Source: an uncultured Lachnospiraceae bacterium (GTDB lineage: Bacteria > Bacillota > Clostridia > Lachnospirales > Lachnospiraceae). From it: DNA of 35,457 nucleotides. The first letter of the stretch is position 1; the number at the start of each line of letters is the position of its first letter. The stretch is from positions 1 to 35,457 of the forward strand of contig CANTEW010000028.1 in the NCBI GenBank assembly GCA_947652925.1, read 5' to 3'. Under the pieces are notes generated by a model. That model had not been told where the DNA came from. It saw nothing but the letters and a program-made list of their open reading frames with translations, and made no database searches. Made by a program: the position numbers and the translations under genes. Positions 8,360 to 35,457 of this stretch are shown one piece after another.

Positions 8360-9211
8360 ATGGAACAGCATATCGTAAAAGTTAAAAATAAAAAAGGTGT
8401 GCGGGTGATCCCGGGTTTCGGCCTTTCCATGGGCGTGACCCTGGCTATGCTGGGGTGTCTGGTGCTGATCCCGCTGGCCTCTATCTTCTTGAGTGCCAGC
8501 CGGTTAGGATTTGGGGAATTTATAGGAGTGGTCACATCCCGCCAGGTTGTCTCCGGCTATGTGGTCAGCCTGTCCTGTGCTTTTTTGGCCGCTCTGGTAA
8601 ATGCTGTGTTCGGCATTGTCCTTGCCTGGGTCCTGGTGCGCTATGAGTTCCCGGGCAAACGGCTGATGGATGGGATGATCGAGCTTCCGTTCGCCCTGCC
8701 CACTGCGGTGGCGGGGATCGCGCTCACTTATCTCTATTCTGACCAGGGGTGGATCGGTTCTCTTTTTGCTAAAGTGGGCATCAAGATCGCCTATACCCGT
8801 ATCGGCATCACCATCGCTATGGTGTTCGTGGGGATCCCGTTTGTTGTGAGGGCGGTGCAGCCAGTGCTGGAGAAACTGGATCGGCAGTATGAGGAAGCGG
8901 CGATGATGCTGGGGGCAAATAAACCATACACATTTTTCAGAGTCATCCTGCCGGAATTGTTCCCGGCGCTGCTGGCTGGTTTCGGCCTTGCCTTTGCCCG
9001 AGGTATCGGGGAATATGGGAGCGTGGTGTTCATCGCGGGGAATATCCCTTATAAGACACAGATCGCCCCTCTGCTGATCATGACGAAGCTGGAGCAGTAT
9101 AAGTATGCAGACGCTACGGCGATCGCGTTGGTGCTGCTGCTCATATCTTTCCTGCTGATGTTCCTGATCAATTCTATACAGATCTATATGCAGAGGTTCA
9201 GTAAAGCGTAA
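8360..9211 (+). CDS. cysT: Sulfate ABC transporter permease CysT
   Basis: One of two membrane subunits of the sulfate/thiosulfate importer, about 283 residues with six predicted hydrophobic segments. The binding-protein-dependent permease motif is clear: EEAAMMLGANKPYTFFRVILPELFPAL, and LPFALPTAVAGIALTYLY is typical of CysT. ATG 8360 has AGGGG just upstream; an ATG at 8345 that overlaps the previous stop is possible but too close to GGAGG. It sits between the binding protein and CysW genes. Confidence 0.93.
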   Translation: MEQHIVKVKNKKGVRVIPGFGLSMGVTLAMLGCLVLIPLASIFLSASRLGFGEFIGVVTSRQVVSGYVVSLSCAFLAALVNAVFGIVLAWVLVRYEFPGKRLMDGMIELPFALPTAVAGIALTYLYSDQGWIGSLFAKVGIKIAYTRIGITIAMVFVGIPFVVRAVQPVLEKLDRQYEEAAMMLGANKPYTFFRVILPELFPALLAGFGLAFARGIGEYGSVVFIAGNIPYKTQIAPLLIMTKLEQYKYADATAIALVLLLISFLLMFLINSIQIYMQRFSKA

Positions 9212-25050: not shown

Positions 25051-25734
25051 ATGGGAAAAAGACGAAGGTTATGTATCTTTATCATCATTTTTTTGCTGTA
25101 CAGCATAATGGTCGCGGGTGTATTTTATCAGGCAGGGTATAAGAGTGCCTATGGAGGCATGGAGAGTCCTGGATCGGTCCTTGACTTCCAGACGTTTTAT
25201 GCGAGTATCTCAGATATCCAGGATCATGTGCTGACCGTGAAAGGGATGAGAGTGAACGATATAAATTTCAGAGGCGACTTTGTCCTGTCCCTCACAGATG
25301 AGACAAAGATCATCTGGAGAGGTACGGATATCCCATTGGATGATCTGGAGGTGGGCGCGCACATAGCGGTCACGTTTACCGGCGGAGTGATGGAGAGCGA
25401 TCCGGCCCAGATAACACAGGTGGCTCAGATCCAAGCGTTAGACGATCAGATAAGGGGATCGGCGCCTGCTGAGGAACAGGCGGCTGAGGTCACGTCTGAG
25501 CAGGTGAAAAAGCTGACGCCCTCCATGACTTGCGCCGATGTCATCGAGGCGCTGGGGGATACGCGGGATATTGGGAGTGGGAACTATATATTGGAATATG
25601 AAGTTGACGGGGGATATCTCCTCCGGATCTCTTTTGCAGGAGACGATGCACAGTTAGGGACTACAGGAGACGGGCTTCTGGATGATATGATCCCCTGCGA
25701 TAGGGCACGTGGACAAAAAGTTGATGGGGGATGA
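25051..25734 (+). CDS. Membrane-anchored protein with OB-like domain, unknown function
   Basis: The product has 227 residues. A basic start (MGKRRR) and one hydrophobic segment (LCIFIIIFLLYSIMVAGVFY) anchor it with the bulk outside. Residues ~50-125 (DHVLTVKGMRVND...FVLSLTDETKIIWRG...GAHIAVTFTG) resemble the small OB-like folds of DUF3221-type proteins. The C-terminal part (LTPSMTCADVIEALGDTRDIG...YEVDGGYLLRISF) looks like a SmpA/BLIP-like repeat. Both readings are tentative. It precedes the response regulator by 25 nt and is probably co-transcribed with the two-component genes, so it may be an accessory sensor or immunity factor. Confidence 0.6.
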   Translation: MGKRRRLCIFIIIFLLYSIMVAGVFYQAGYKSAYGGMESPGSVLDFQTFYASISDIQDHVLTVKGMRVNDINFRGDFVLSLTDETKIIWRGTDIPLDDLEVGAHIAVTFTGGVMESDPAQITQVAQIQALDDQIRGSAPAEEQAAEVTSEQVKKLTPSMTCADVIEALGDTRDIGSGNYILEYEVDGGYLLRISFAGDDAQLGTTGDGLLDDMIPCDRARGQKVDGG

Positions 25735-25759: not shown

Positions 25760-26464
25760 ATGTATTATATCCTGGTGGTAGACGACGAGCCATCTGTGCA
25801 GAGAGAATTGAGGTCATTGTTAGAAAATGCCGGATATCGTGCGGATATTGTGGAGGATTTTACATGTATCCCAGAATATGTACAAAAAGTACGACCCGAT
25901 CTGATCCTTTTGGATGTGGCGTTGCCGGGTGCAGATGGGATCACCTTATGTTCCAAGATACGGATGATGTCAGATGTCCCCATTATCTTTATCACTTCGC
26001 AGAGCTCTTCCTCCGCAGAATTGGAATGTATGATGACTGGCGGCGATGATTTTATAGAAAAGCCTTATCGACCTGCCGTACTATTGGCGCATATTGCTGC
26101 AGTACTGCGGAGAGTTTCCGGGAGATCCCAGAACAAAGTACTCGTCTTTCACGGGATAGTACTGGATCTGTTGGATGGCACGATACAGTATGAAAAAAAG
26201 AAAGTTGAACTTTCGAAAAATGAACTACATATCTTATCTTATTTTTTTACACATAAAGGGGAGATCGTGTCAAGAGAGGATCTTATAAATGCTCTGTGGG
26301 ATAATGAGAGCTTTGTGGATGATAATACATTGAGTGTGAATATCAGGAGGATCCGCCGGAAGTTAGAGGATATCGGGATAAAGGACTTGATACAGACAAA
26401 GAGAGGGATGGGATACCGATTGAAGATGAGGGAGAGGGAAGATGAGGCTGAGGGATCACTATAA
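25760..26464 (+). CDS. BceR-like response regulator (OmpR family)
   Basis: The product has 234 residues: receiver domain with acidic pocket D9/D10, phospho-acceptor D52 (LILLDVALPG), conserved TSQSS and K (EKPY), then a winged-helix DNA-binding domain (VELSKNELHILSYFFTHKGEIVSREDLI, DDNTLSVNIRRIRRKL, KRGMGYRL). ATG 25760 follows AGGAGG. The histidine kinase gene overlaps its end by 23 nt. Partner type and linked transporters point to the Bce class that responds to peptide antibiotics. The direct repeats at 27480-27517 are a candidate target. Confidence 0.92.
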   Translation: MYYILVVDDEPSVQRELRSLLENAGYRADIVEDFTCIPEYVQKVRPDLILLDVALPGADGITLCSKIRMMSDVPIIFITSQSSSSAELECMMTGGDDFIEKPYRPAVLLAHIAAVLRRVSGRSQNKVLVFHGIVLDLLDGTIQYEKKKVELSKNELHILSYFFTHKGEIVSREDLINALWDNESFVDDNTLSVNIRRIRRKLEDIGIKDLIQTKRGMGYRLKMREREDEAEGSL

Positions 26465-27449
26465 GGATAGAGTGACAAAGATATTGGGGGCATTGGTCGT
26501 TCTGGCTATCTTATCAGGATTTTTATATATTGTAGGAAATACTTTTGCAACTATTTTTCTGATGGATGGGACGGTCATCGGTATATGGATGATAGAGGAT
26601 CTGATCGGGTGGCACAGAAGGAAAAGATATTTTAAAATGATCTGGGAACGGGTAGAAGATATAGAACAACCTTGGTTGATCGCTGAACTTCTGCCCGTTT
26701 CTTATCGTGCGGAGGATAGAGCATATCAGGGATTACTGAGGATGGCAGGGAGTTCCGCTATAGAGCGGATCCGTGAGATAGAGGATAGAGAAAGGGAATA
26801 TCAAGAATATATTGAGGAATGGATACATGAAGTGAAAGCGCCGATCACCTCTATCCGGCTCATCATAGAAAATCAGATCAAGAACGACCCTGTGCTAAAA
26901 AGGGATTTCGATATGGAATTGGGGAGGATCGAGAATGATGTAGAACGCGCGCTATACTATGCGCGCTCAGGACAAGTCTATAAAGATTATCTGATACAGA
27001 AGTTGGATCTGCATCGTGTCTTAGTCAAGGCGATCGATAAGAACCGGACTATGATCATGAACAGTTCTGTCAGCGTTCATGTTGAGTGTGCGGATGATCT
27101 TTATATCTATGGAGATGAAAAATGGCTGCTCTTCATCATAAGCCAGATCCTTTTAAATTCCGTAAAGTACCGATGTAAGGAAAATGCAAAGATCATCTTG
27201 TCATGTACAGATAAAGAGAAAAGGATCATCCTGAAGATATGGGATAATGGGACGGGGATAAAGGAAGAGGAACTGCCGAGGATCTTCGAAAAAGGTTTTA
27301 CGGGGAGTAATGGAAGGAAAAATGAGCGCTCTACCGGGATCGGGTTATATTTGGTCAAAAAGTTATGTGAGAAGTTAGATATAGAAGTGTGGGCTGGATC
27401 TATATACAGGAGATCTACATCCATCTATCTCTCACTCCCGGTAGAGTAA
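26442..27449 (+). CDS. BceS-like intramembrane-sensing histidine kinase
   Basis: The product has 335 residues. Two membrane helices (~13-32 and ~36-56) with almost no external loop mark the intramembrane-sensing type. The H-box is EEWIHEVKAPITSIR (H129), followed by N-box ILLNSVKY, G-boxes WDNGTGIKEEELPRIFEKGF and STGIGLYLVKKL. Such kinases sense through a BceAB-type transporter rather than directly; the likely partners here are the BceB-type (27585) and BceA-type (32660) genes. A perfect 14-bp palindrome ATCTCTTAAGAGAT follows at 27456-27469. Confidence 0.92.
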   Translation: MRLRDHYKDRVTKILGALVVLAILSGFLYIVGNTFATIFLMDGTVIGIWMIEDLIGWHRRKRYFKMIWERVEDIEQPWLIAELLPVSYRAEDRAYQGLLRMAGSSAIERIREIEDREREYQEYIEEWIHEVKAPITSIRLIIENQIKNDPVLKRDFDMELGRIENDVERALYYARSGQVYKDYLIQKLDLHRVLVKAIDKNRTMIMNSSVSVHVECADDLYIYGDEKWLLFIISQILLNSVKYRCKENAKIILSCTDKEKRIILKIWDNGTGIKEEELPRIFEKGFTGSNGRKNERSTGIGLYLVKKLCEKLDIEVWAGSIYRRSTSIYLSLPVE

Positions 27450-27479
27450 AAAAGGATCTCTTAAGAGATAACGATATAT

Positions 27480-27554
27480 TTCAGGTTATGTGACAAGATC
27501 GTAAGATTCAGGTAATGAAAATCAATAGGTGGTCTTCGCGGTCAGTGGTATACT
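27480..27554 (+). promoter_or_regulatory. Candidate regulated promoter with direct repeats
   Basis: TTCAGGTTATG (27480-27490) and TTCAGGTAATG (27507-27517) are direct repeats 27 bp apart. About 30 nt later is TGGTATACT with an extended -10 (27549-27554). The position, directly after the two-component genes and before the transporter/maturase genes, suits a response-regulator site. No clear -35 box is seen, as often at activated promoters. Confidence 0.45.
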
Positions 27555-27584
27555 GTCTGTATCCGGAAGGGCCATAAAGGAAGG

Positions 27585-29277
27585 ATGGTGCTGATCGCAG
27601 CGATGATGTCCGCATTTGATCCGTTGTTTTTTTCAAAAGAAGTCCAAAAAAATTGTGAGACAGTTTTGTTCGTATTCTTGGGGACCGCCACCATACTGAT
27701 CGCTATGGTCACAGCATGGCTGGTCTATCATATGATGCGGCGGTCGTTAAAAGTACGCAGCAGAGAATTGGGGCTTTATATGCTGTTTGGCGTGGAAAAG
27801 GCAGAGATATCCAGGATCATCCGGAAAGAAATGATACTTATGGCGGGAATGGCATATATACCTGGGATCGTAGCAGGAAAAATACTGGAACAGTTCCTGA
27901 TGGTGATTTTCTTCCATATGTTCCGGACAGAATATGTGCTTAAGTTAGATCTTCGATCAAAGACGATCTGTTTTACAGCGATGCTATATCTTTTCTGCCA
28001 TCTGCCCGCGTTGCTAAAGGTGAAAAAAACGATCAAAAAAATGGATATCCGGCAGTTAAATGAAGGGCAGGAGATAAATGGATCCGGCATAAAGAGAGCT
28101 GGCAGGAAATACAAAAGACACAGGGTCAGAAAATGGCTTCTGAAAGGAGATCGTCTATTCCTATGCAGGGCGATAGGCTCTGAGATGTATACTATGCGAA
28201 AAAAGATCGTATCCGTTATGCTATTTTTAACGATCGCTATCGCAGGGAGTACGGTGGCCATGATGTATACAGACTATCAAAACCATCAGATTGATTCAGA
28301 ATACCCGTTTGATGTGATGATATATCATCAGACGCCAAAACCTGAGTTTTGGCGTGAAAAGGCTATATTGGAAAGAGAGGCAGGGATCCAGTCATCCCAT
28401 GGATACATTATATATCAAGATGGCAGCAGTGTTATGAATGAATGGCTTTATATGCACTTGATGTACTTTGGGGATCGCTTTATCAGCGGGGATGGCACAT
28501 TTGACCCAGAAGGACTGGAGACTGATGAAGGGGATTACGACGTTTACTATCCGTATGATACATATATGAAGGTGAGCGACTATAACGTATTGTTGCAAAT
28601 GCTCGGTGAAAAGCCGGTCAGGTTACGGGGGGACGGATACATCCTGCAGATCAAGAGGAGATTGGAACCTGAACTTACGGATGAGATACGGGGAAGGACG
28701 CTCTTGTGCGGGCAAAAAGAACTGCACAGTGGACCTGGGGCAAAATGGACACAACGGCGCAGATTACGTCTTGGTGATCCCAGATGACGCCGCAGACCAT
28801 ATGGCACCATATTATTCTGTACTGGCTGCATTTACAGACGAAGAGGCGACGGGAGCATTGTTTGATAGATTAAAGGATGTATCTGACGGGGATGAGGGAC
28901 TTTATTGGGGGAGTAACCACAGTATTTTATATGTCAGCCCGATCTTGCTGAAAAAACAAGTAGAGACAAAATTAAAAGCAACGATCGTTCCTTTTATATT
29001 TTCTTGCGCATATGTGAGCATTGTGTTTTTGTGTGTATCGATCTCTTTTTTTGCCTCCCATCTGATCCCGTTGGGTATGGCGCTGATCCCCGGCTGCCTG
29101 ATCGCGTACCGTGCGAGCAAGGGTTTTATCTTAGCTACAGGGCTGCGTACAGTATGGGTCAGATATGTACTTTTGTCATTCTTGTGGGTGCTGATGCTGT
29201 ATATCCTTTATTTCATTCTTACAGATATATTTTTCAGGAGGAACATACATCATGGAAAGGACGGAGGACTGTTATGA
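27585..29277 (+). pseudogene. BceB-type permease, N-terminally shortened and frameshifted
   Basis: BceB-type permeases have ~650 residues and ten membrane helices and act with BceA in peptide-antibiotic sensing and resistance. Here the first segment (27585-28787) begins VLIAAMMSAFDPLFFSKEV, which aligns with the end of the usual first helix; the customary ~25 residues before it (LRNxxRSxxDY type) are absent. RSRELGLYMLFGVEKAEISRIIRKE is the FtsX hallmark. At about 28715-28745 the frame must shift: the rest (GHNGADYVLVIPDDAADH to the C-terminal helices) is one base over and stops at 29277. ATG 27585 abuts AAAGGAAGG, so initiation is doubtful. The ATPase gene that normally precedes BceB is missing here. 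The maturase gene overlaps the stop (ATGA). Confidence 0.75.
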
Positions 29278-30647
29278 GACCATCTTATTACAACCACATT
29301 ATCGAAAACAAAACAGGGAGCGGAGACGCCCTGTATTACAATATGCGCACAGGGAGCCTGGCACATATGAAAGCCGAAGAGCATTGCCAGTTTCAGGCAT
29401 ATGCGGCGGAGAGGAAAGAGATCGCAGACCCTAGATTTTTAGAGGATCTGAAACATTGTGGTTTTTTGGTGGAGGACGATCTGGATGAAAAAAAGGATAT
29501 CAAGCTGCGTATGTTGGAGGCGAGATCTGATACATCCGTATTGTCACTGACGATCGCGCCTACAATGGAGTGTGATCTTCGTTGTGTGTATTGTTACGAG
29601 AGTGGGCGTCACAGCGATGGGTATATGACAGAGGATGTCTGTGATGATATCTGCAGACTGGTGGAAATGGAAGCGCCCCATTTGGAAAGATTGGTGGTCG
29701 TATGGTATGGCGGGGAACCGTTATTAGCGATCAGACAGATAGAAGAGCTGACAGATAAAATAAAAAGTATCTGCAGCAAATATGATATAGGATATTCGGC
29801 AAGTATCGTTACGAATGGTCATCTTCTCACCGAGGAAGTCTGCGATAAGCTATTGGGGTCGGATATCACAGAGGTCCAGATAACGTTGGATGGGGATGCT
29901 GATACCCATAATAGCAGAAGGCCGCTGGCGACTGGCGGGGACACATATGGGACGATACTCGCAAATTTAGAAAAGATCCACGGAAAGATCGCGATCGCGA
30001 TCCGGATCAACATAGATAAGGAAAATCAGGATAAGGTCCAGGATGTGATAGAGGGATTGAAAGAAAGAAATATCTACGAGGATGTATTCTGCTATCTTGG
30101 ACAGGTAACGCCTGTAAATGGGGTATATGAGGATCGCAAGTGCCTGTCTACAGAAATATATTCCAAGATCGGACTCGATCTCTGGCTGAAAGATCCTGTG
30201 TCTTTGGAAGCTTTTTATCCGTTGCCAATGGGGAATTATTGTGGGGCAGATCATACACAGAGTTATGTGATCGATGCAAAGGGAGATATGTATAAATGCT
30301 GGAGTGATATTGGGATCATGGAGCGCCGTATGGGGACTGTCAAAGAGTGGGTGGATCCTCAAAAAAGATCCGATATCAGCGATGCACAGTCGCAGCAGAT
30401 AATATCCAGTTATATGCTATACGATCCCACAGAAGATGAAAAATGCGGCGCATGCAGATTTATGCCAATATGTATGGGCGGATGCCCTCATAGCAGGATA
30501 GAAAAAAATCAATCATGCGAGCAGTACCGCTATGATCTGAGCGAGTACCTGCAGGCATATGCAGAAAGAGTATTGAATGAAAGGAGGGGAGCGCATGAAG
30601 ATCTTAGTCCAGCCGCAGAGCAAGAAAAGGACACGGGAGTTATGTAG
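29274..30647 (+). CDS. Radical SAM/SPASM peptide maturase
   Basis: The product has 457 residues. An N-terminal ~85-residue region (RPSYYNHIIENKTGSGDALYYN) has the size of a RiPP recognition element. The radical SAM cluster motif CDLRCVYCYE (C100, C104, C107) is followed by YGGEPLL and SIVTNGHLL. The C-terminal SPASM region has further cysteines (YCGADHTQ..., MYKCW, CGACRFMPICMGGCPHSR, SCEQY) for auxiliary Fe-S clusters. Such enzymes install thioether or carbon-carbon cross-links in precursor peptides. ATG 29274 overlaps the permease stop; GGAGG lies upstream. Its 3' end overlaps the small Cys-containing peptide gene by 53 nt, its probable substrate. The Clo7bot-type maturases are a possible relative, from memory. 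Confidence 0.93.
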   Translation: MRPSYYNHIIENKTGSGDALYYNMRTGSLAHMKAEEHCQFQAYAAERKEIADPRFLEDLKHCGFLVEDDLDEKKDIKLRMLEARSDTSVLSLTIAPTMECDLRCVYCYESGRHSDGYMTEDVCDDICRLVEMEAPHLERLVVVWYGGEPLLAIRQIEELTDKIKSICSKYDIGYSASIVTNGHLLTEEVCDKLLGSDITEVQITLDGDADTHNSRRPLATGGDTYGTILANLEKIHGKIAIAIRINIDKENQDKVQDVIEGLKERNIYEDVFCYLGQVTPVNGVYEDRKCLSTEIYSKIGLDLWLKDPVSLEAFYPLPMGNYCGADHTQSYVIDAKGDMYKCWSDIGIMERRMGTVKEWVDPQKRSDISDAQSQQIISSYMLYDPTEDEKCGACRFMPICMGGCPHSRIEKNQSCEQYRYDLSEYLQAYAERVLNERRGAHEDLSPAAEQEKDTGVM

Positions 30648-30768
30648 ATATACTTGTCCTGTATATAATACTGGAACAAAAGGCATGAAAAAACTCATCA
30701 AGAAGTTTCTCAAGAAAAAATATAGACATGGGAAGCATCGGGGGAGAGTCTGCTGGTATGGCAATTAA
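30595..30768 (+). CDS. Putative RiPP precursor peptide, cationic with three Cys
   Basis: A 57-residue peptide with an excellent ribosome site (AAAGGAGGGG, 6 nt before ATG 30595). The start MKILVQPQSKKR and CRYTC (C17, C21) recall Clo7bot-type Cys-rich precursors; this is from memory and tentative. The second half is a strongly basic, amphipathic-looking stretch (KGMKKLIKKFLKKKYRHGK) and the end is RVCWYGN (C53). There are no Asp residues and one Glu. Most RiPP leaders are acidic, so leader and core limits are unclear. Cross-links from C17, C21 or C53 by the adjacent maturase, and export by the ABC protein at 30947, are inferred. It overlaps the maturase gene and a longer start at 30577 is less likely. 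Confidence 0.7.
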   Translation: MKILVQPQSKKRTRELCRYTCPVYNTGTKGMKKLIKKFLKKKYRHGKHRGRVCWYGN

Positions 30769-30794
30769 TATACCTTCAGATCGAAGGAGATCAA

Positions 30795-30893
30795 ATGAGG
30801 GACGATGACATCATATTGGAAATATCTGTGCTGGTCAATGCCTCCTGGGCACTGGCCAGCTTAGTACTCCATCCGGTCAGAGCAGGACTCTGA
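30795..30893 (+). CDS. 32-residue small ORF, possible peptide
   Basis: GAAGGAGA (30783-30790) lies 4 nt before ATG 30795. The reading frame gives MRDDDIILEISVLVNASWAL followed by ASLVLHPVRAGL. It is acidic at the start and hydrophobic later, the opposite of the neighbouring precursor, and has no Cys. The stop lies in the loop of the hairpin at 30865-30912. It may be a second substrate, a membrane peptide, a leader peptide controlling the exporter, or chance. The remaining sequence between 30769 and 30946 has only the hairpin and a repeat end. Confidence 0.4.
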   Translation: MRDDDIILEISVLVNASWALASLVLHPVRAGL

Positions 30894-30912
30894 TCTCTGG
30901 CCGGATGGAGTA
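30865..30912 (+). promoter_or_regulatory. Long hairpin before the ABC exporter gene
   Basis: TACTCCATCCGGTCAGAG (30865-30882) pairs with CTCTGGCCGGATGGAGTA (30895-30912) over 18 bp with one G-T pair and a 12-nt loop. No T-run follows, so a simple terminator is unlikely; an mRNA stabiliser or attenuator between precursor and exporter is more plausible. The following bases start a repeat end. Confidence 0.6.
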
Positions 30913-30931
30913 TTAGAGTGTGTTTGGAAAA
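30913..30931 (+). repeat. Single end of the MITE/IS5 repeat family
   Basis: TTAGAGTGTGTTTGGAAAA matches the common element end with one change. No partner end is seen before the exporter gene, so this is a solo or eroded end. Confidence 0.55.
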
Positions 30932-30946
30932 AAGGGGAGCGGAGAT

Positions 30947-32575
30947 ATGAAGATCCAGACTCTTTTGAAGGAAGAGATCCTATCTATGAAAAGAGCCATT
31001 GCCGTTTATTTTTTGGTTTTATCAGGAACCTTGCTCTTACAGTTGCTGGTCCCGTATGTAAGCGGCGCATATATAGATTCTCTAGAGAGAGAACAACCCA
31101 TGATCCTGGCGTTTATAGGGGTGATGGCATTTTTGGATGTATTTTCTGCATTGCTGGAATATGGGATGGCATATCTGATGACAAGATTGGATAACACATT
31201 TTTGTATAAAATATGTAATAGGATGTTTCAAAAAATATACGATGCATCCCTTTCTTTTTCCCAGAGCAGAGATGCTGCTTTTTTGACAGATCAGATCACC
31301 GGGGATGCGGCGGTCGTTACGGGATTTGTATTAAATAGCCTTCCGGATATCGCGTATGACATGGTCCTTTTGTCTGTGAGTACTCTATTTATATTTCATG
31401 TGGATCTGCTATTGGGGTCGCTGATCACTCTGACGATCCCAATATATCTTTTTATCTATTGGAGATCAGAAAAAAGGATGTATGAAAACGAATATAGATA
31501 CAAAGAGGCAGAGAATGCTCATACGGCTAAGGGGATGGAACAGATATGCTGCGTGCGATCTGTAAAAGAAAATGGCGTATCAAAAGAGATGGAAGAAAGG
31601 TTTGCGCGTTCATTCCGTCGAATGTTAAAAAGTGCTGTGGACCAGGTAAAGACACAATATCTTTTTTCTGATATGAATCAGCTTATCATGGTATCATGCT
31701 ATCTGTTCACCATGGGGATCGGTGGTCATAATGTTGTGATCGGAAGGATATCGATAGGATCTTTCACGATCATCAACACTTATGTGGACATGATGTTATC
31801 GACTGCTATAGATATCATCGATCTTTTCGGGAGTTATCCAAAAGTAAAAGTCGCGGCAGACCGTATGGATGCATTATTGACAGAGTGTCGAAAAGTTTCT
31901 CCATACGATGAGAGGGCAGAGAGTCTGGGAGAAAATGGTATAAGTTCGTTAAGACTTGAGGATATCTCATTTTCGTTTGGAGAGAGATACTTATTCAGGC
32001 GATTGTCGGCAGAGTTTAAGAAAGGCAGGATCTATGGGATAGTGGGTGAAAATGGGTCGGGAAAATCCACATTGCTGGATGTGATGCTCGGCCTGTACCC
32101 TGGAGATCATGAGGGGGAGATCTTTTATAACGGGATCAATATAAGAGATCTCAGCAGTGATGAGATCGTGAGACTGAATGTTGCTTTTTTAGGACAGCAC
32201 ACACAACGGATCGACATCTCTCCGAAAGGATATCTGCGTTTTGGGGTCGATGGATACGATCCAGATCGGGAGAAAAGACTGATCCGGTATTTTTGGGGGG
32301 ATCAAGAGCTTGATATTGGAGAAGAAGGGAGCATTGCGCAATGTTCCGGTGGGGAGATGCAAAAACTGGAGCTGATACGCGTTTTTCAAAAAGACCGAAC
32401 GCTGACAATATTAGATGAGCCTACAAACGGATCAGATGCAGAAACAGTACAACGGCTTATCCATTTGATCGAGCAGGCAAAGAAAGATCATATTTTTATC
32501 ATCGTGTCGCATGATAAAAAGATACTGGATATATGTGATGAAAAAATAGAACTTGGCAGATCAGAGTGTGTCTGA
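30947..32575 (+). CDS. ABC exporter with fused membrane and ATPase domains
   Basis: The product has 542 residues. The N-terminal ~300 have about six membrane helices (ABC exporter type 1 fold, no peptidase domain). The ATPase part has Walker A GENGSGKST, Q-loop FLGQHTQ, signature CSGGEMQKLELIR, Walker B LTILDEPTNGSD and H-loop IVSHDK. Position after the putative precursor suggests export of the modified peptide; leader cleavage would need another protease. ATG 30947 is chosen because AGGGGAG precedes it; an in-frame GTG at 30920 is inside a repeat end. The last codons and TGA stop (GAGTGTGTCTGA) coincide with a repeat end, so the C-terminus ECV is probably repeat-derived. Confidence 0.9.
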   Translation: MKIQTLLKEEILSMKRAIAVYFLVLSGTLLLQLLVPYVSGAYIDSLEREQPMILAFIGVMAFLDVFSALLEYGMAYLMTRLDNTFLYKICNRMFQKIYDASLSFSQSRDAAFLTDQITGDAAVVTGFVLNSLPDIAYDMVLLSVSTLFIFHVDLLLGSLITLTIPIYLFIYWRSEKRMYENEYRYKEAENAHTAKGMEQICCVRSVKENGVSKEMEERFARSFRRMLKSAVDQVKTQYLFSDMNQLIMVSCYLFTMGIGGHNVVIGRISIGSFTIINTYVDMMLSTAIDIIDLFGSYPKVKVAADRMDALLTECRKVSPYDERAESLGENGISSLRLEDISFSFGERYLFRRLSAEFKKGRIYGIVGENGSGKSTLLDVMLGLYPGDHEGEIFYNGINIRDLSSDEIVRLNVAFLGQHTQRIDISPKGYLRFGVDGYDPDREKRLIRYFWGDQELDIGEEGSIAQCSGGEMQKLELIRVFQKDRTLTILDEPTNGSDAETVQRLIHLIEQAKKDHIFIIVSHDKKILDICDEKIELGRSECV

Positions 32576-32616
32576 AAACCTCATATATCTTTAGGTCATA
32601 GGAGATCTACAGATGA
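32562..32616 (+). repeat. Repeat end shared with the region after cysA
   Basis: AGAGTGTGTCTGAAAACCTCATATATC...ATCTACAGATGA matches 10871-10918 closely over about 45 bp. It begins inside the exporter gene and supplies its stop codon. No partner end is seen before the ATPase gene at 32660. Confidence 0.65.
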
Positions 32617-32659
32617 TAGATGAACACATCCTAAAGGGTTGTAGAAAGGAAAAGACAGG

Positions 32660-33442
32660 ATGCAGGCATATATCAAGGTGGTGGATGTTGAGAAATATCA
32701 TGGAAGTTCGGGAAGTATCACTAAAGCGATAGACAGGGTCAGTTTTGAGATCGAAAAAGGGGGATTTATCGCGATCATGGGGGGATCCGGTTCTGGGAAG
32801 ACAACATTGCTGAACATGATCGCCACGATCGACACTGTTACCGCGGGACATATATATTTTGAGGGAGAGGATATCACAAAGATGAACGAGGAGGAGCGGA
32901 GCGGGTTCAGGAAAGGAGATCTAGGTTTTATATTCCAGGATCTGGACCTGTTGGATATTATGACATTGGAGGAAAATATCTATCTGCCATCGATCCTTAA
33001 GAAAGAAGGGAGCGATCATATCGTAAAACGGGCGAGGGAGATCATGGATATATTGGGTATCAGACAAGTTGGGGACAAATACCCATATCAAGTATCCGTC
33101 GGACAGCGGCGGCGATGTTCCTGTGCCAGAGCACTTGTGAACGATCCTAAGTTTATTTTGGCGGATGAACCGACAGACGCCCTTGATGTCCAGAATCCAG
33201 AAAATTTAATGGGATCACTTTTGGAGATCAATGACAGATTTAAGACGACTATATTGATGGTCACGCACGATCCATTCGCTGCAAGCTACTGTGACCGTGT
33301 CTTATTTTTGGAAAAAGGAAAGATATCTTATGAGTTATATCGGGGAGCAAGAAAAAGGGAGGAGAATCTCCAGGCTATCCTGGATGCGCAGAAAAGCATA
33401 AGGTCTTGTCGTTCCAGTGGCGGTTGGATCCCAAGCAGATGA
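32660..33442 (+). CDS. BceA-like ABC ATPase with altered signature motif
   Basis: The product has 260 residues. Walker A GGSGSGKTT (41-49), Q-loop IFQDLDLLD, Walker B FILADEPTDALD and H-loop MVTHDP are present. The signature normally VSGGQ in this group reads VSVGQ (145-149) followed by RRRCSCARAL, with a Gly-to-Val change at a residue that contacts ATP. The last ~15 residues (RSCRSSGGWIPSR) look like read-through tail. It is the natural partner of the BceB-type permease at 27585, but the two are separated by the maturase, precursor and exporter genes, and order is inverted from the usual A-then-B. Activity is doubtful. GAAAGGAAAAG precedes the ATG. Confidence 0.85.
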   Translation: MQAYIKVVDVEKYHGSSGSITKAIDRVSFEIEKGGFIAIMGGSGSGKTTLLNMIATIDTVTAGHIYFEGEDITKMNEEERSGFRKGDLGFIFQDLDLLDIMTLEENIYLPSILKKEGSDHIVKRAREIMDILGIRQVGDKYPYQVSVGQRRRCSCARALVNDPKFILADEPTDALDVQNPENLMGSLLEINDRFKTTILMVTHDPFAASYCDRVLFLEKGKISYELYRGARKREENLQAILDAQKSIRSCRSSGGWIPSR

Positions 33443-33677: not shown

Positions 33678-34235
33678 ATGGCAAAACAGTTAAAGAAAAG
33701 ACCGATTGAAAAAGAACTGAAATTCTTAGCTGACTTTGAACTATACGGCGTGTTGATGTTTGCAGGAATGTATTTTGCAACAAAGTTTATTGTCGATATG
33801 GACTTTGGAAAGAACGCGTTCAAATTGAATTGGATCTCGTTTTATCCATTGTTGATATTTTCTGTCATAGTAATAGAGGGCAGCTTCTATTGGCGTAATA
33901 AGTTAAGGATGGTGAGAAAAAAAACGGCGTTAAGTAATTTTGAAATTGGCAGGATCTACAGTAAGATAAGATGGATAAATGTAATTTTATTAACAGTCTA
34001 TCTGCCGATGATCATTATTGCGGTTTTTGAAAAAGAAGATCTATCTGGAGTGATCGTTGGGATCTTACTGTATTTTATGGCGGTAATAGAACAGATCAAT
34101 TATTTTCATATCAGGCTTTCTTATGAGACGGTAAATGGCAGTCTTTTAGTTATTGAGCCTTTAAAAAAACTTTTTACTGGAACTGGAAAACGTTCACGAT
34201 TGCGGAAGGATATTGATACTTATTTGAAAGGTTGA
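33678..34235 (+). CDS. Four-helix membrane protein of unknown function
   Basis: The product has 185 residues. Hydrophobic segments lie at about 22-42 (LYGVLMFAGMYFATKFIV), 52-70 (FYPLLIFSVIVIEGSFYW), 96-114 (VILLTVYLPMIIIAVF) and 121-140 (LSGVIVGILLYFMAVIEQ). Both ends are basic and probably cytoplasmic. I do not recognise the family. Position after the RiPP/transport genes makes an immunity role possible but unproven; the preceding 235-nt gap suggests its own promoter. Ribosome site AAAGGAGA is well placed. Confidence 0.7.
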   Translation: MAKQLKKRPIEKELKFLADFELYGVLMFAGMYFATKFIVDMDFGKNAFKLNWISFYPLLIFSVIVIEGSFYWRNKLRMVRKKTALSNFEIGRIYSKIRWINVILLTVYLPMIIIAVFEKEDLSGVIVGILLYFMAVIEQINYFHIRLSYETVNGSLLVIEPLKKLFTGTGKRSRLRKDIDTYLKG

Positions 34236-34505: not shown

Positions 34506-35108
34506 CCCAAGGAAGAGAAAGGCAAGGTCAGAAAATTAGGACTACCAACAGTTGTAGACCAGCTGATCTAGCAGGCGGTTACCTAGAGCGTGTTTGAAAA
34601 ATGCTTTATGTCAACCGTAAGTCACAATTTGTGGGAGATCTGTCCCGAATGAAGGCGGCGTAGCGGGCTACGGCAACTGAATAAGGGACAGATATACCGC
34701 AAAGTGGGGCGTACGGATGGCGTGAATGATTTTTCAAACACGCTCTAGGAACTGACGCCGCTGTTCGAGCCACAGTTATGAGTATTGCAGAACGGATCCT
34801 TTGAGAGATCGGAGGAAGGCGTGCCGCAGGGCGGCCCACGAAATCCATTGTGTGGAAACGTGATGCTGAATGGACTGGATAAAGGACTGGAAAGCAGAGA
34901 ACACCGGTTCGTGAGGTATGCGGACGACACACTGATATCCTGCAAGGGCAGAAAGGGTGCGGAGAGGACGCTTGCAAACATCATCCCACTTATAGAGGGA
35001 GAACTATTCCTGAAAGTGAACCGAGTCAAGACTACAGTAACCCATGTCAGCAAGACAAAATACCTGGGATATATCTCCATGCTTGACTATTATCTGAAAG
35101 TATCGTGA
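34506..35108 (+). pseudogene. Group II intron reverse transcriptase, deleted and interrupted
   Basis: The first part reads PKEEKGKVRKLGLPTVVDQLI then a stop, then QAVT, the conserved finger region of intron reverse transcriptases. At that point a 166-bp repeat is inserted (34583-34748). Translation resumes with ELTPLFEPQ, then a deletion removes the central fingers/palm portion. The frame from about 34785 gives SEEGVPQGGPRNPLCGNVMLN, the catalytic YADD and KVNRVKTTVTHVSKTKYLGY, ending at 35108. Maturase and endonuclease domains are missing. The gene is clearly dead. Confidence 0.85.
34583..34748. repeat. Complete 166-bp MITE-like element
   Basis: Perfect 20-bp inverted ends: CTAGAGCGTGTTTGAAAAAT (34583-34602) and its complement (34729-34748). 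The interior has no ORF; it contains GCTTTATGTCAACCGTAAGTCACA and CCGCAAAGTGGGGCGTACGG, both shared with other copies. It splits the reverse transcriptase at QAVT/ELTP, so the insertion event can be read directly: the site before insertion was probably ACCTAGGAA with duplication of TA or CTAG. Confidence 0.9.
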
Positions 35109-35194: not shown

Positions 35195-35457
35195 ACAAAT
35201 TTGTACGGGAAAAGAAACAATATATGAAAAAGACATAAAAGCCATCTCATGTACAGCTGCATTTCCCGATGAAATCCTAACGTGTTATATTACACTGTAC
35301 TCTGTACAATGTTTCATCGGATTTGATCGTACAGAGCTGATCTTATTTCTCTATAAATTGAAGATTCTAATAGTTTGATCAGAAGTTGATCCGTAATAAA
35401 AACATATTTAGCAATAAATATTATGAACAAGCATTAAGATAGCATCATGGCTTATCC
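35195..35457. other. AT-rich tail without recognisable gene
   Basis: A 9-bp inverted repeat CCGATGAAA (from about 35268) / TTTCATCGG (to about 35320) spans a region with TGTACAGCTG and CTGTACAATG words. No coding frame or RNA gene is recognisable up to the window end. Confidence 0.3.

What the first reader, a model, noticed from the sequence alone, without database searches (positions are those of the whole stretch)
25760..33442. RiPP locus with a highly cationic Cys-containing precursor and Bce-type sensing genes
Seen: a radical SAM/SPASM maturase gene (CxxxCxxC plus SPASM cysteines) overlaps a 57-codon peptide gene with a strong ribosome site, followed by an ABC exporter. A BceRS-like two-component system precedes them, and BceB- and BceA-like transporter genes bracket them. 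The peptide has CRYTC near its start, a Lys/Arg-rich amphipathic stretch and a C-terminal RVCWYGN. Known: SPASM maturases next to short Cys peptides are typical of ranthi-/sactipeptide-like RiPPs; Bce systems respond to peptide antibiotics. Inferred: the locus makes and senses its own antimicrobial peptide. A basic rather than acidic precursor, with Cys at both ends of a helix-like core, is not a class I can name.
Basis: partly seen in the sequence, partly recalled or inferred. Interest (0 to 1): 0.75.

Follow-up and report, generated by a model that had tools for sequence, protein, structure and literature searches.

The report
Cationic radical-SAM peptide with Bce sensor
A bacterium carries a small gene cluster that most likely makes, exports and senses an unusually positively charged, enzyme-modified peptide of an apparently undescribed kind, although in this particular genome the sensing and self-protection pump looks broken.

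Summary
A response regulator, a kinase, a BceB-like permease, a radical SAM/SPASM maturase, an overlapping 57-codon peptide gene, a peptidase-less ABC exporter and a BceA-like ATPase follow each other on one strand. The same order recurs in a second genome of the genus (maturase 73%, peptide 70% identical), so the peptide is a real gene and probably the maturase's substrate. Its first seven residues fit M-x-Φ-[ILV]-x-x-P, a pattern found in small ORFs directly behind the maturase in all six genomes of its clade and in 10 of 40 maturase loci. The cores differ completely. The nearest named kind is Clo7bot, but both Clo7bot models fail here: a sister family. In the clade, Asn/Asp stands four residues after Cys more often than chance (6 of 15), the PapB-type ranthipeptide spacing, noticed after the fact. 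A Bce-type operator-like site lies ahead of the permease gene, so production may sit in the sensor's own feedback loop. New point: in the window BceB is broken and the BceA signature altered, so this copy probably no longer senses or protects; the relative's copy looks whole. No chemistry or activity was tested.

The parts
25760..26464 (+). OmpR/PhoB-type response regulator (BceR-like)
   Evidence: Response_reg + Trans_reg_C; 84% identical to L048 copy, dN/dS 0.087
26442..27449 (+). Histidine kinase with N-terminal membrane segments close together and no extracellular domain (BceS/SapS-like)
   Evidence: SapS model 185.5 bits, cut-off 550; hydrophobic segments at residues 14-32 and 30-48 in the window (they overlap, the second just over threshold), 14-32 and 37-55 in L048
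27488..27505 (.). Bce-type response-regulator operator-like inverted repeat ahead of the permease gene
   Evidence: 1 mismatch to AnnTTACnAnnnnGTnAG (consensus in PMC10858260), only place in the window (both strands of it, 1.16 matches expected by chance); same place in L048
27585..28787 (+). BceB-like FtsX permease, first piece (broken gene)
   Evidence: FtsX domain; 70% identical to L048 BceB residues 24-409
28606..29277 (+). BceB-like permease, second piece in another frame (broken gene, internal loss)
   Evidence: 77-82% identical to L048 BceB residues 410-527 and 562-632
29274..30647 (+). Radical SAM/SPASM peptide maturase
   Evidence: TIGR04334 298.3 bits (cut-off 600), SPASM TIGR04085 59.9 bits (cut-off 27); Radical_SAM; tree
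30595..30768 (+). 57-residue precursor peptide: leader MKILVQP, CX3CX3N head, cationic amphipathic stretch, C-terminal GKHRGRVCWYGN
   Evidence: 70% identical partner in L048, dN/dS 0.225; leader pattern in relatives; net charge +17
30830..30916 (+). Two stem-loops between precursor and exporter genes
   Evidence: fold of 30790-30930: -64.8 kcal/mol, z -6.5; hairpin of different sequence at the same place in L048, z -4.75 (coordinates)
30947..32575 (+). ABC exporter (membrane + ATPase domain), no peptidase domain found
   Evidence: ABC_membrane + ABC_tran, no peptidase family; Walker A GENGSGKS, signature CSGGE; 68% identical to L048
32660..33442 (+). BceA-like ABC ATPase, signature motif altered (VSVGQ; relative has VSGGQ)
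   Evidence: L_ocin_972_ABC/LolD-type best hits; alignment and outgroup comparison

Best explanation
A RiPP operon. The 57-residue precursor is held through its first seven residues (MKILVQP) by the radical SAM/SPASM maturase, which joins cysteines to residues nearby. The likeliest bonds are Cys21-Asn25 and Cys53-Asn57, non-alpha thioethers of the ranthipeptide kind. The product is a cross-linked head, a strongly cationic amphipathic helix and a conserved C-terminal knob; a peptidase-less ABC exporter sends it out. It acts on membranes or cell-wall intermediates of competitors. BceAB takes it off the producer's own envelope and in doing so drives the kinase and response regulator, which turn on the operon from the operator ahead of bceB, so the peptide induces its own synthesis and immunity together. 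In the window's genome BceB and probably BceA are damaged, so the loop is open there and the cluster is decaying or silent; the relative keeps it whole. Shown: gene content, conserved order, leader pattern, operator-like site, the damage. Inferred: substrate pairing, bond type, activity, regulation.
For: Maturase family and motifs. Same seven-gene order in L048. Leader-pattern ORFs with a ribosome site lie near maturases at 16 per 57,904 strand-bases against 5 per 573,830 elsewhere; 10 of 40 loci sense, 0 of 40 antisense. All six rows of the maturase clade (SH-aLRT 99) have one behind the maturase (window; others). Cys-X3-[Asp/Asn] 6 of 15, shuffles 1.5, P 0.001, 0.011 allowing for 7 offsets; PapB uses Cys-X3-Asp/Glu (PMC9413430, passages), NxxcA bonds Cys to Asn (PMC8326336, passages). 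Net charge +17; hydrophobic moment of residues 28-45 0.55 (shuffles reach it in 1.8%), L004 0.49 (8.6%). Kinase without outer domain; relative's BceB with ~250 residues between two membrane segments. Operator-like site in both genomes. Damage to BceB and BceA.
Against: No chemistry, expression or activity data. The leader pattern was fixed after I had read the ORF lists of the same loci, and 30 of 40 loci do not show it. The Cys-X3-[Asp/Asn] excess was noticed after looking, rests on six peptides, is absent in L013, and is not seen in 21 precursors I picked from the wider group (19 of 110 at offset 4, 23 of 112 at offset 3). An operator-like site at one mismatch is not rare (1.16 expected in the window, 0.72 in L048). 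A BceB hit occurs in 1 of 20 neighbourhoods, kinase hits in 2, regulator hits in 4, so Bce sensing is not a general trait. No leader protease recognised in the cassette. Peptide dN/dS rests on 57 codons; a cruder count gave Fisher P 0.08. BceA by count shows no excess of window changes (2 against 2). SCIFF ranthipeptides are listed with quorum sensing (PMC8326336), so killing is not a given.
Confidence: 0.6

Rival explanations
1. The peptide is a signal rather than a toxin: the modified cationic peptide works as a pheromone through BceRSAB, and killing is incidental or absent.
For: The operator-like site lies ahead of the genes that make the peptide, and SCIFF ranthipeptides are listed with quorum sensing (PMC8326336, passages).
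Against: Net charge +17 and an amphipathic segment fit membrane action; Bce modules are described as sensing and detoxifying peptide antibiotics (PMC10858260 and PMC10314905, passages).
Confidence: 0.2
2. The biosynthesis genes were inserted by chance into an unrelated Bce resistance operon, and the Bce module answers some other peptide.
For: BceB hits accompany the maturase in only 1 of 20 neighbourhoods, while an exporter hit of 528-551 residues does so in 10 of 20; the Bce genes bracket the biosynthesis genes.
Against: In L048 bceB-maturase and maturase-peptide overlap by 4 bases and exporter-bceA by 16; the order is unchanged at synonymous distances of about 0.8-1.7.
Confidence: 0.15
3. 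The maturase makes a different bond: alpha-carbon thioethers (sactipeptide), or an aromatic cross-link at CWYGN, rather than Cys-Asn beta-thioethers.
For: The model hits are all below cut-off apart from the general SPASM domain among the 25 shown, so they do not settle the chemistry; the C-terminal block GKHRGRVCWYGN with Trp and Tyr is identical in both genomes.
Against: Cys-X3-[Asp/Asn] excess in the clade; within the clade's precursors a Trp-Tyr pair occurs only in this pair of genomes.
Confidence: 0.3
4. In the window's genome the locus is a dying remnant with no present role.
For: BceB in three aligned pieces; BceA signature glycine, and a residue four further on, changed where L048 and four outgroups agree; maturase 16 residues longer than the relative's, running into the peptide gene; exporter departs from four agreeing outgroups at 3 places where L048 does not, against 0 the other way.
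Against: Maturase shows no clear excess of changes (7 against 6 departures from four agreeing relatives; 27 against 20 with L005 alone); BceA by count 2 against 2; exporter motifs are intact; peptide frame and conserved blocks are kept.
Confidence: 0.5

Closest known systems
Clo7bot systems (NCBIfam TIGR04334 maturase CtpM, TIGR04333 Cys-rich peptide)
   Same: Maturase is the best-scoring NCBIfam model here (298 bits); precursors begin with a seven-residue pattern ending in Pro (MKFIKKP, MKYIVKP against MKILVQP), first Cys at residue 15-17, Cys often spaced by four.
   Different: Both curated cut-offs fail: 298 against 600 for the maturase, no hit for the peptide, while L042 and L070 pass both. 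One precursor behind the maturase instead of an array before it; 3 Cys and a polycationic tail instead of a Cys-rich core; separate clade.
PapA/PapB-type ranthipeptides
   Same: Radical SAM/SPASM maturase; Asn/Asp four residues after Cys in the clade; PapB joins Cys to Asp/Glu in Cys-X3-Asp/Glu (PMC9413430, passages).
   Different: PapB model 130.8 bits against cut-off 340; acceptor would be Asn here; PapA itself was not fetched or compared; chemistry unproven.
NxxcA (Streptococcus)
   Same: Cys-Asn thioether as precedent (PMC8326336, passages).
   Different: There Asn20 precedes Cys23; here Asn follows Cys by four residues. Sequences not compared.
BceRSAB modules of Gram-positive bacteria
   Same: Regulator, kinase without sensing domain, permease with a large outer part (in L048), ATPase, operator-like site ahead of the permease gene.
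   Different: RiPP biosynthesis and export genes lie between bceB and bceA; in the window the permease is broken.
Epipeptide locus yydFGHIJ of Bacillus subtilis
   Same: Radical-SAM-made antimicrobial peptide with a postulated immunity ABC transporter (PMC7026026, passages).
   Different: Epimerisation is described as the sole modification; protease YydH present; response through LiaRS; the text does not contain 'Bce'.

Membership tests
Clo7bot | Maturase above TIGR04334 cut-off (600 bits) | tested here: not met
   298.3; L004 329.1, other four clade members 284-312; controls L042 775.3 and L070 727.5 pass
Clo7bot | Precursor above TIGR04333 cut-off (31 bits) | tested here: not met
   No TIGR04333 hit listed for the window, L004, L005, L012, L013, L039 or two L014 peptides with E limit 10 (HMMER's filters drop most above 0.1); two control peptides score 39
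Radical SAM/SPASM RiPP | CX3CX2C radical SAM domain plus SPASM domain beside a conserved small precursor gene | tested here: met
   PF04055 56.1 bits over 29.5, TIGR04085 59.9 over 27; precursor conserved
Ranthipeptide | Cys-X3-Asp/Glu(-Asn) pairs in the core | tested here: inconclusive
   6 of 15 against 1.5 in shuffles, post hoc; no excess in a 21-precursor set
Ranthipeptide | Thioether from Cys to a beta or gamma carbon | not testable with these tools
   needs mass spectrometry or NMR
Sactipeptide | Thioether from Cys to an alpha carbon | not testable with these tools
   needs mass spectrometry or NMR
Bce module | Kinase with two membrane helices and no extracellular sensing domain | tested here: met
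   hydrophobic segments close together within the first 55 residues in window and L048, by a simple hydropathy scan
Bce module | Intact BceB permease with a large extracellular domain | tested here: not met
   window gene in three aligned pieces; in L048 one 633-residue frame, ~250 residues between two membrane segments
Bce module | Operator ahead of transporter genes | tested here: inconclusive
   one mismatch to the published consensus in both genomes, but about one such match is expected by chance

The most novel reading that the evidence does not exclude
A new ranthipeptide-like class: a leader of the Clo7bot-like kind drives Cys-to-Asn thioethers (CX3N) at both ends of a polycationic helix, giving a stapled head-helix-knob antimicrobial peptide whose own Bce flux sensor controls its biosynthesis genes, so that immunity load and production form one feedback loop.
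Probability: 0.3. Interest if true: 0.75.

Novelty: new variant of a known kind. Interest (0 to 1): 0.5.

Why it matters
It suggests one leader rule (M-x-Φ-[ILV]-x-x-P) for a group of radical SAM/SPASM maturases around and beside Clo7bot, which finds precursors as short as 25 residues. It also offers a compact case in which a peptide's immunity pump, sensor and biosynthesis appear wired together, with a whole copy and a naturally broken copy to compare. If the CX3N bonds are real, Asn would be an acceptor four residues after Cys, which the passages I read do not describe.

Tried and rejected
Clo7bot membership: rejected on two curated cut-offs. PapB, SCIFF, lachnocin and the other specific maturase models among the 25 shown: all below cut-off. 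Precursor relatives in plasmids, phages and viral contigs: none; in solved structures only chance-level hits, best E 1.2. Maturase relatives in genome contigs by patterns: one distant locus. Viral contigs: two distant loci, not followed. Plasmids: six records under 40% identity, two of them opened. Further members of the six-row clade: none in 38, 16, 145 and 1 genomes, partly searched before. Both cassette flanks in four other genomes of the genus: 0 of 4 each, with no positive control. A second small ORF after the precursor (window 30795 on): by eye it shares only its first codons with L048 and runs into the hairpin; not taken as a gene. Structure prediction: never ran. Literature: 'Clo7bot' 0 papers; 'radical SAM' with 'BceAB' 2 papers, seen as listing, neither titled on such a locus; seen as listings; passages only of PMC3128592, PMC10858260, PMC7026026, PMC8326336, PMC9413430, PMC10314905. 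No paper was read whole.

Rows dropped: searches left out L010 (match at 2.6e-41, an oversight), L002 and repeat loci; one search was given 41 loci and lost L021 (broken maturase frame), so 40. The tree also left out L034, a near-copy of L033, and added L070, L071 and the window, so 42 rows. It is the quick kind with one support value, 21 open forks and several long branches. One search used 21 precursors picked by me (near-duplicates in L042 and L070 left out); one search used six (L004 left out as near-copy of the window). One search used the 20 neighbourhoods, several cut short by contig ends; 8 of its 16 near hits lie in L048, L049 and L061, which suggested the pattern first. A regular expression picked a wrong place as L048's BceA signature; the alignment is what I use.
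Full report
What is there. Family scans agree: Response_reg and Trans_reg_C; HATPase; FtsX; Radical_SAM and SPASM; ABC_membrane plus ABC_tran with no peptidase family; ABC_tran. The peptide matches no Pfam or NCBIfam model (best chance-level hit E 0.058).

Is the peptide real? Of five genomes of the genus, two have the maturase at E 1e-30 or better: the window's own and G001. In G001 (L004/L048) the full cassette recurs in the same order: regulator, kinase, a 633-residue permease, maturase, a 57-residue peptide starting at a GTG inside a 4-base overlap, exporter, ATPase. Identities are 84, 74, 70-80, 73, 70, 68 and 76% for regulator, kinase, permease pieces, maturase, peptide, exporter and ATPase, with dN/dS of 0.06-0.23. 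The peptide has 0.225 on 57 codons, and a cruder count gave P 0.08 for fewer replacement changes. Two blocks, YTCPVYNTG and GKHRGRVCWYGN, are identical in both.

Leader rule. Searching 397 family, 392 order and 391 class genomes, each drawn from a larger group, gave 7, 24 and 10 with a maturase match at thresholds 1e-40, 1e-60 and 1e-60 (the window's own genome is one of each count, G324 recurs). Small ORFs with a ribosome site whose first seven residues fit M-x-[IVYFML]-[ILVM]-x-x-P lie on the maturase strand in 10 of 40 loci, on the other strand in 0 of 40. In 20 larger neighbourhoods they number 16 in 57,904 strand-bases near maturases and 5 in 573,830 elsewhere, three of those five being Cys-rich peptides of the same look. 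I fixed the pattern after reading the ORF lists of the same loci, so these counts describe rather than test; 8 of the 16 lie in the three neighbourhoods that suggested it first, and without those three the counts are 8 near and 2 elsewhere (read). In a tree of 42 maturases the window and L004 are sisters (100), and with L005, L012, L013 and L014 they form a clade (99). All six have such a peptide behind the maturase (window, the rest). Cores differ wholly, from 25 residues (L014) to the window's 57. In this clade only the window, L004 and L005 carry polycationic tails: Lys+Arg after residue 7 is 0.34 and 0.41 in window and L005 against 0.08-0.22 in the four other precursors, and net charge is +17, +15 and +15 against -1 to +3.

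What chemistry? In six unlike precursors of the clade, Asp or Asn stands four residues after Cys in 6 of 15 cases against 1.5 in shuffles (P 0.001; 0.011 allowing for seven offsets). The window has C21-PVY-N25 and C53-WYG-N57, and both it and L005 have CX3CX3N. PapB joins Cys to Asp or Glu in Cys-X3-Asp/Glu (PMC9413430, passages), and NxxcA joins Cys to Asn (PMC8326336, passages). A wider set of 21 precursors shows no such excess but does favour Cys-Cys spacing of four (39 of 87 in 19 of them). This is a lead, not proof of a bond.

Sensing. By a simple hydropathy scan the kinase has its membrane segments close together and no outer domain, and the relative's permease has about 250 residues between two membrane segments. 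Published accounts describe Bce kinases as lacking a sensing domain, with BceAB as sensor and detoxifier (PMC10858260, passages), and functional BceAB as needed to activate the kinase (PMC10314905, passages). Between kinase and permease genes both genomes have a conserved block with a site that fits the published consensus AnnTTACnAnnnnGTnAG with one mismatch: the only such place in the window, one of two in L048. By chance 1.16 and 0.72 matches are expected, so place and conservation, not rarity, carry the argument. The genes after it follow with short gaps or overlaps in L048, apart from the stretch between peptide and exporter, where both genomes have a hairpin of unlike sequence (z -6.5 and -4.75).

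Damage in the window. The relative's permease aligns to the window in three pieces, residues 24-409, 410-527 and 562-632, with a change of frame between the first two. The BceA signature reads VSVGQ for VSGGQ, the glycine and a residue four further on differing where L048 and four outgroups agree; by count, however, window-only and L048-only departures are equal (2 and 2), so the case rests on where the change falls. The maturase shows no clear decay (7 against 6 departures from four agreeing relatives, 27 against 20 with L005 alone). The exporter keeps its motifs but has 3 window-only departures against 0. Own-genome permease matches elsewhere are weak (24% identity). So this copy has probably lost sensing and self-protection through its own module, while the relative's copy looks whole. 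An assembly fault cannot be ruled out without reads, though several separate changes make it unlikely.

Place among known things. The best model is the Clo7bot maturase at half its cut-off; Clo7bot loci L042 and L070 pass both the maturase and the peptide cut-off, and the window clade passes neither. In 20 neighbourhoods an exporter hit of 528-551 residues occurs in 10, a BceB hit in 1, kinase hits in 2 and regulator hits in 4. I therefore call it a new variant of radical SAM/SPASM RiPP systems: a sister group of Clo7bot with shared leader logic, an unusual polycationic product and a Bce module of its own. No paper in the library holds the word Clo7bot, and the two that hold both 'radical SAM' and 'BceAB' are, by their listing, not about such a locus.

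Noticed in passing
window 1571, 2545, 2634, 24940, 24982, 30915, 32563, 34585, 34731 (9 of 11 matches); L048 121, 5700, 5846, 8374 (4 of 7): Repeat AGAG[TC]GTGT[TC]TGAAAA: 11 matches with up to 3 mismatches in the window against 1.0 by chance, 7 in L048 against 0.5, some as inverted pairs and beside hairpins; one overlaps the end of ORF 48-1583 (transposase-like by recall, not tested), and ~162-bp units at 34585-34746 and L048 5700-5861 align: probably a small mobile element.
   Followed up: partly
window 35299-35346, - strand: uup cis-regulatory RNA, 51.5 bits over a gathering score of 36.8.
   Followed up: no
window 33678-34235 and 25051-25734: Flanking ORFs not found in four other genomes of the genus (no positive control); the first has three membrane segments and no Pfam or NCBIfam hit.
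   Followed up: partly
L061 (holds the L042 region), before the maturase at 9163: Array of at least eight Clo7bot-type precursors starting MK[YF][IV]V[KEN]P.
   Followed up: partly
L015, L016, L017, L020, L022: Small Cys-containing ORFs beside these maturases start MxYLI/V or MxFLV, mostly with Gly or another residue where Pro stands in the clade, and are longer: perhaps a variant of the same leader.
   Followed up: no
L046 618-992 and 1011-1379: Two 122-124-residue peptides before a maturase, built of repeated N-A-C-G and G-x-C units.
   Followed up: no
L071 (Sarcina sp. JB2 plasmid p8, NZ_CP051762.1): A 10-kb plasmid with a related maturase next to an MFS transporter.
   Followed up: no
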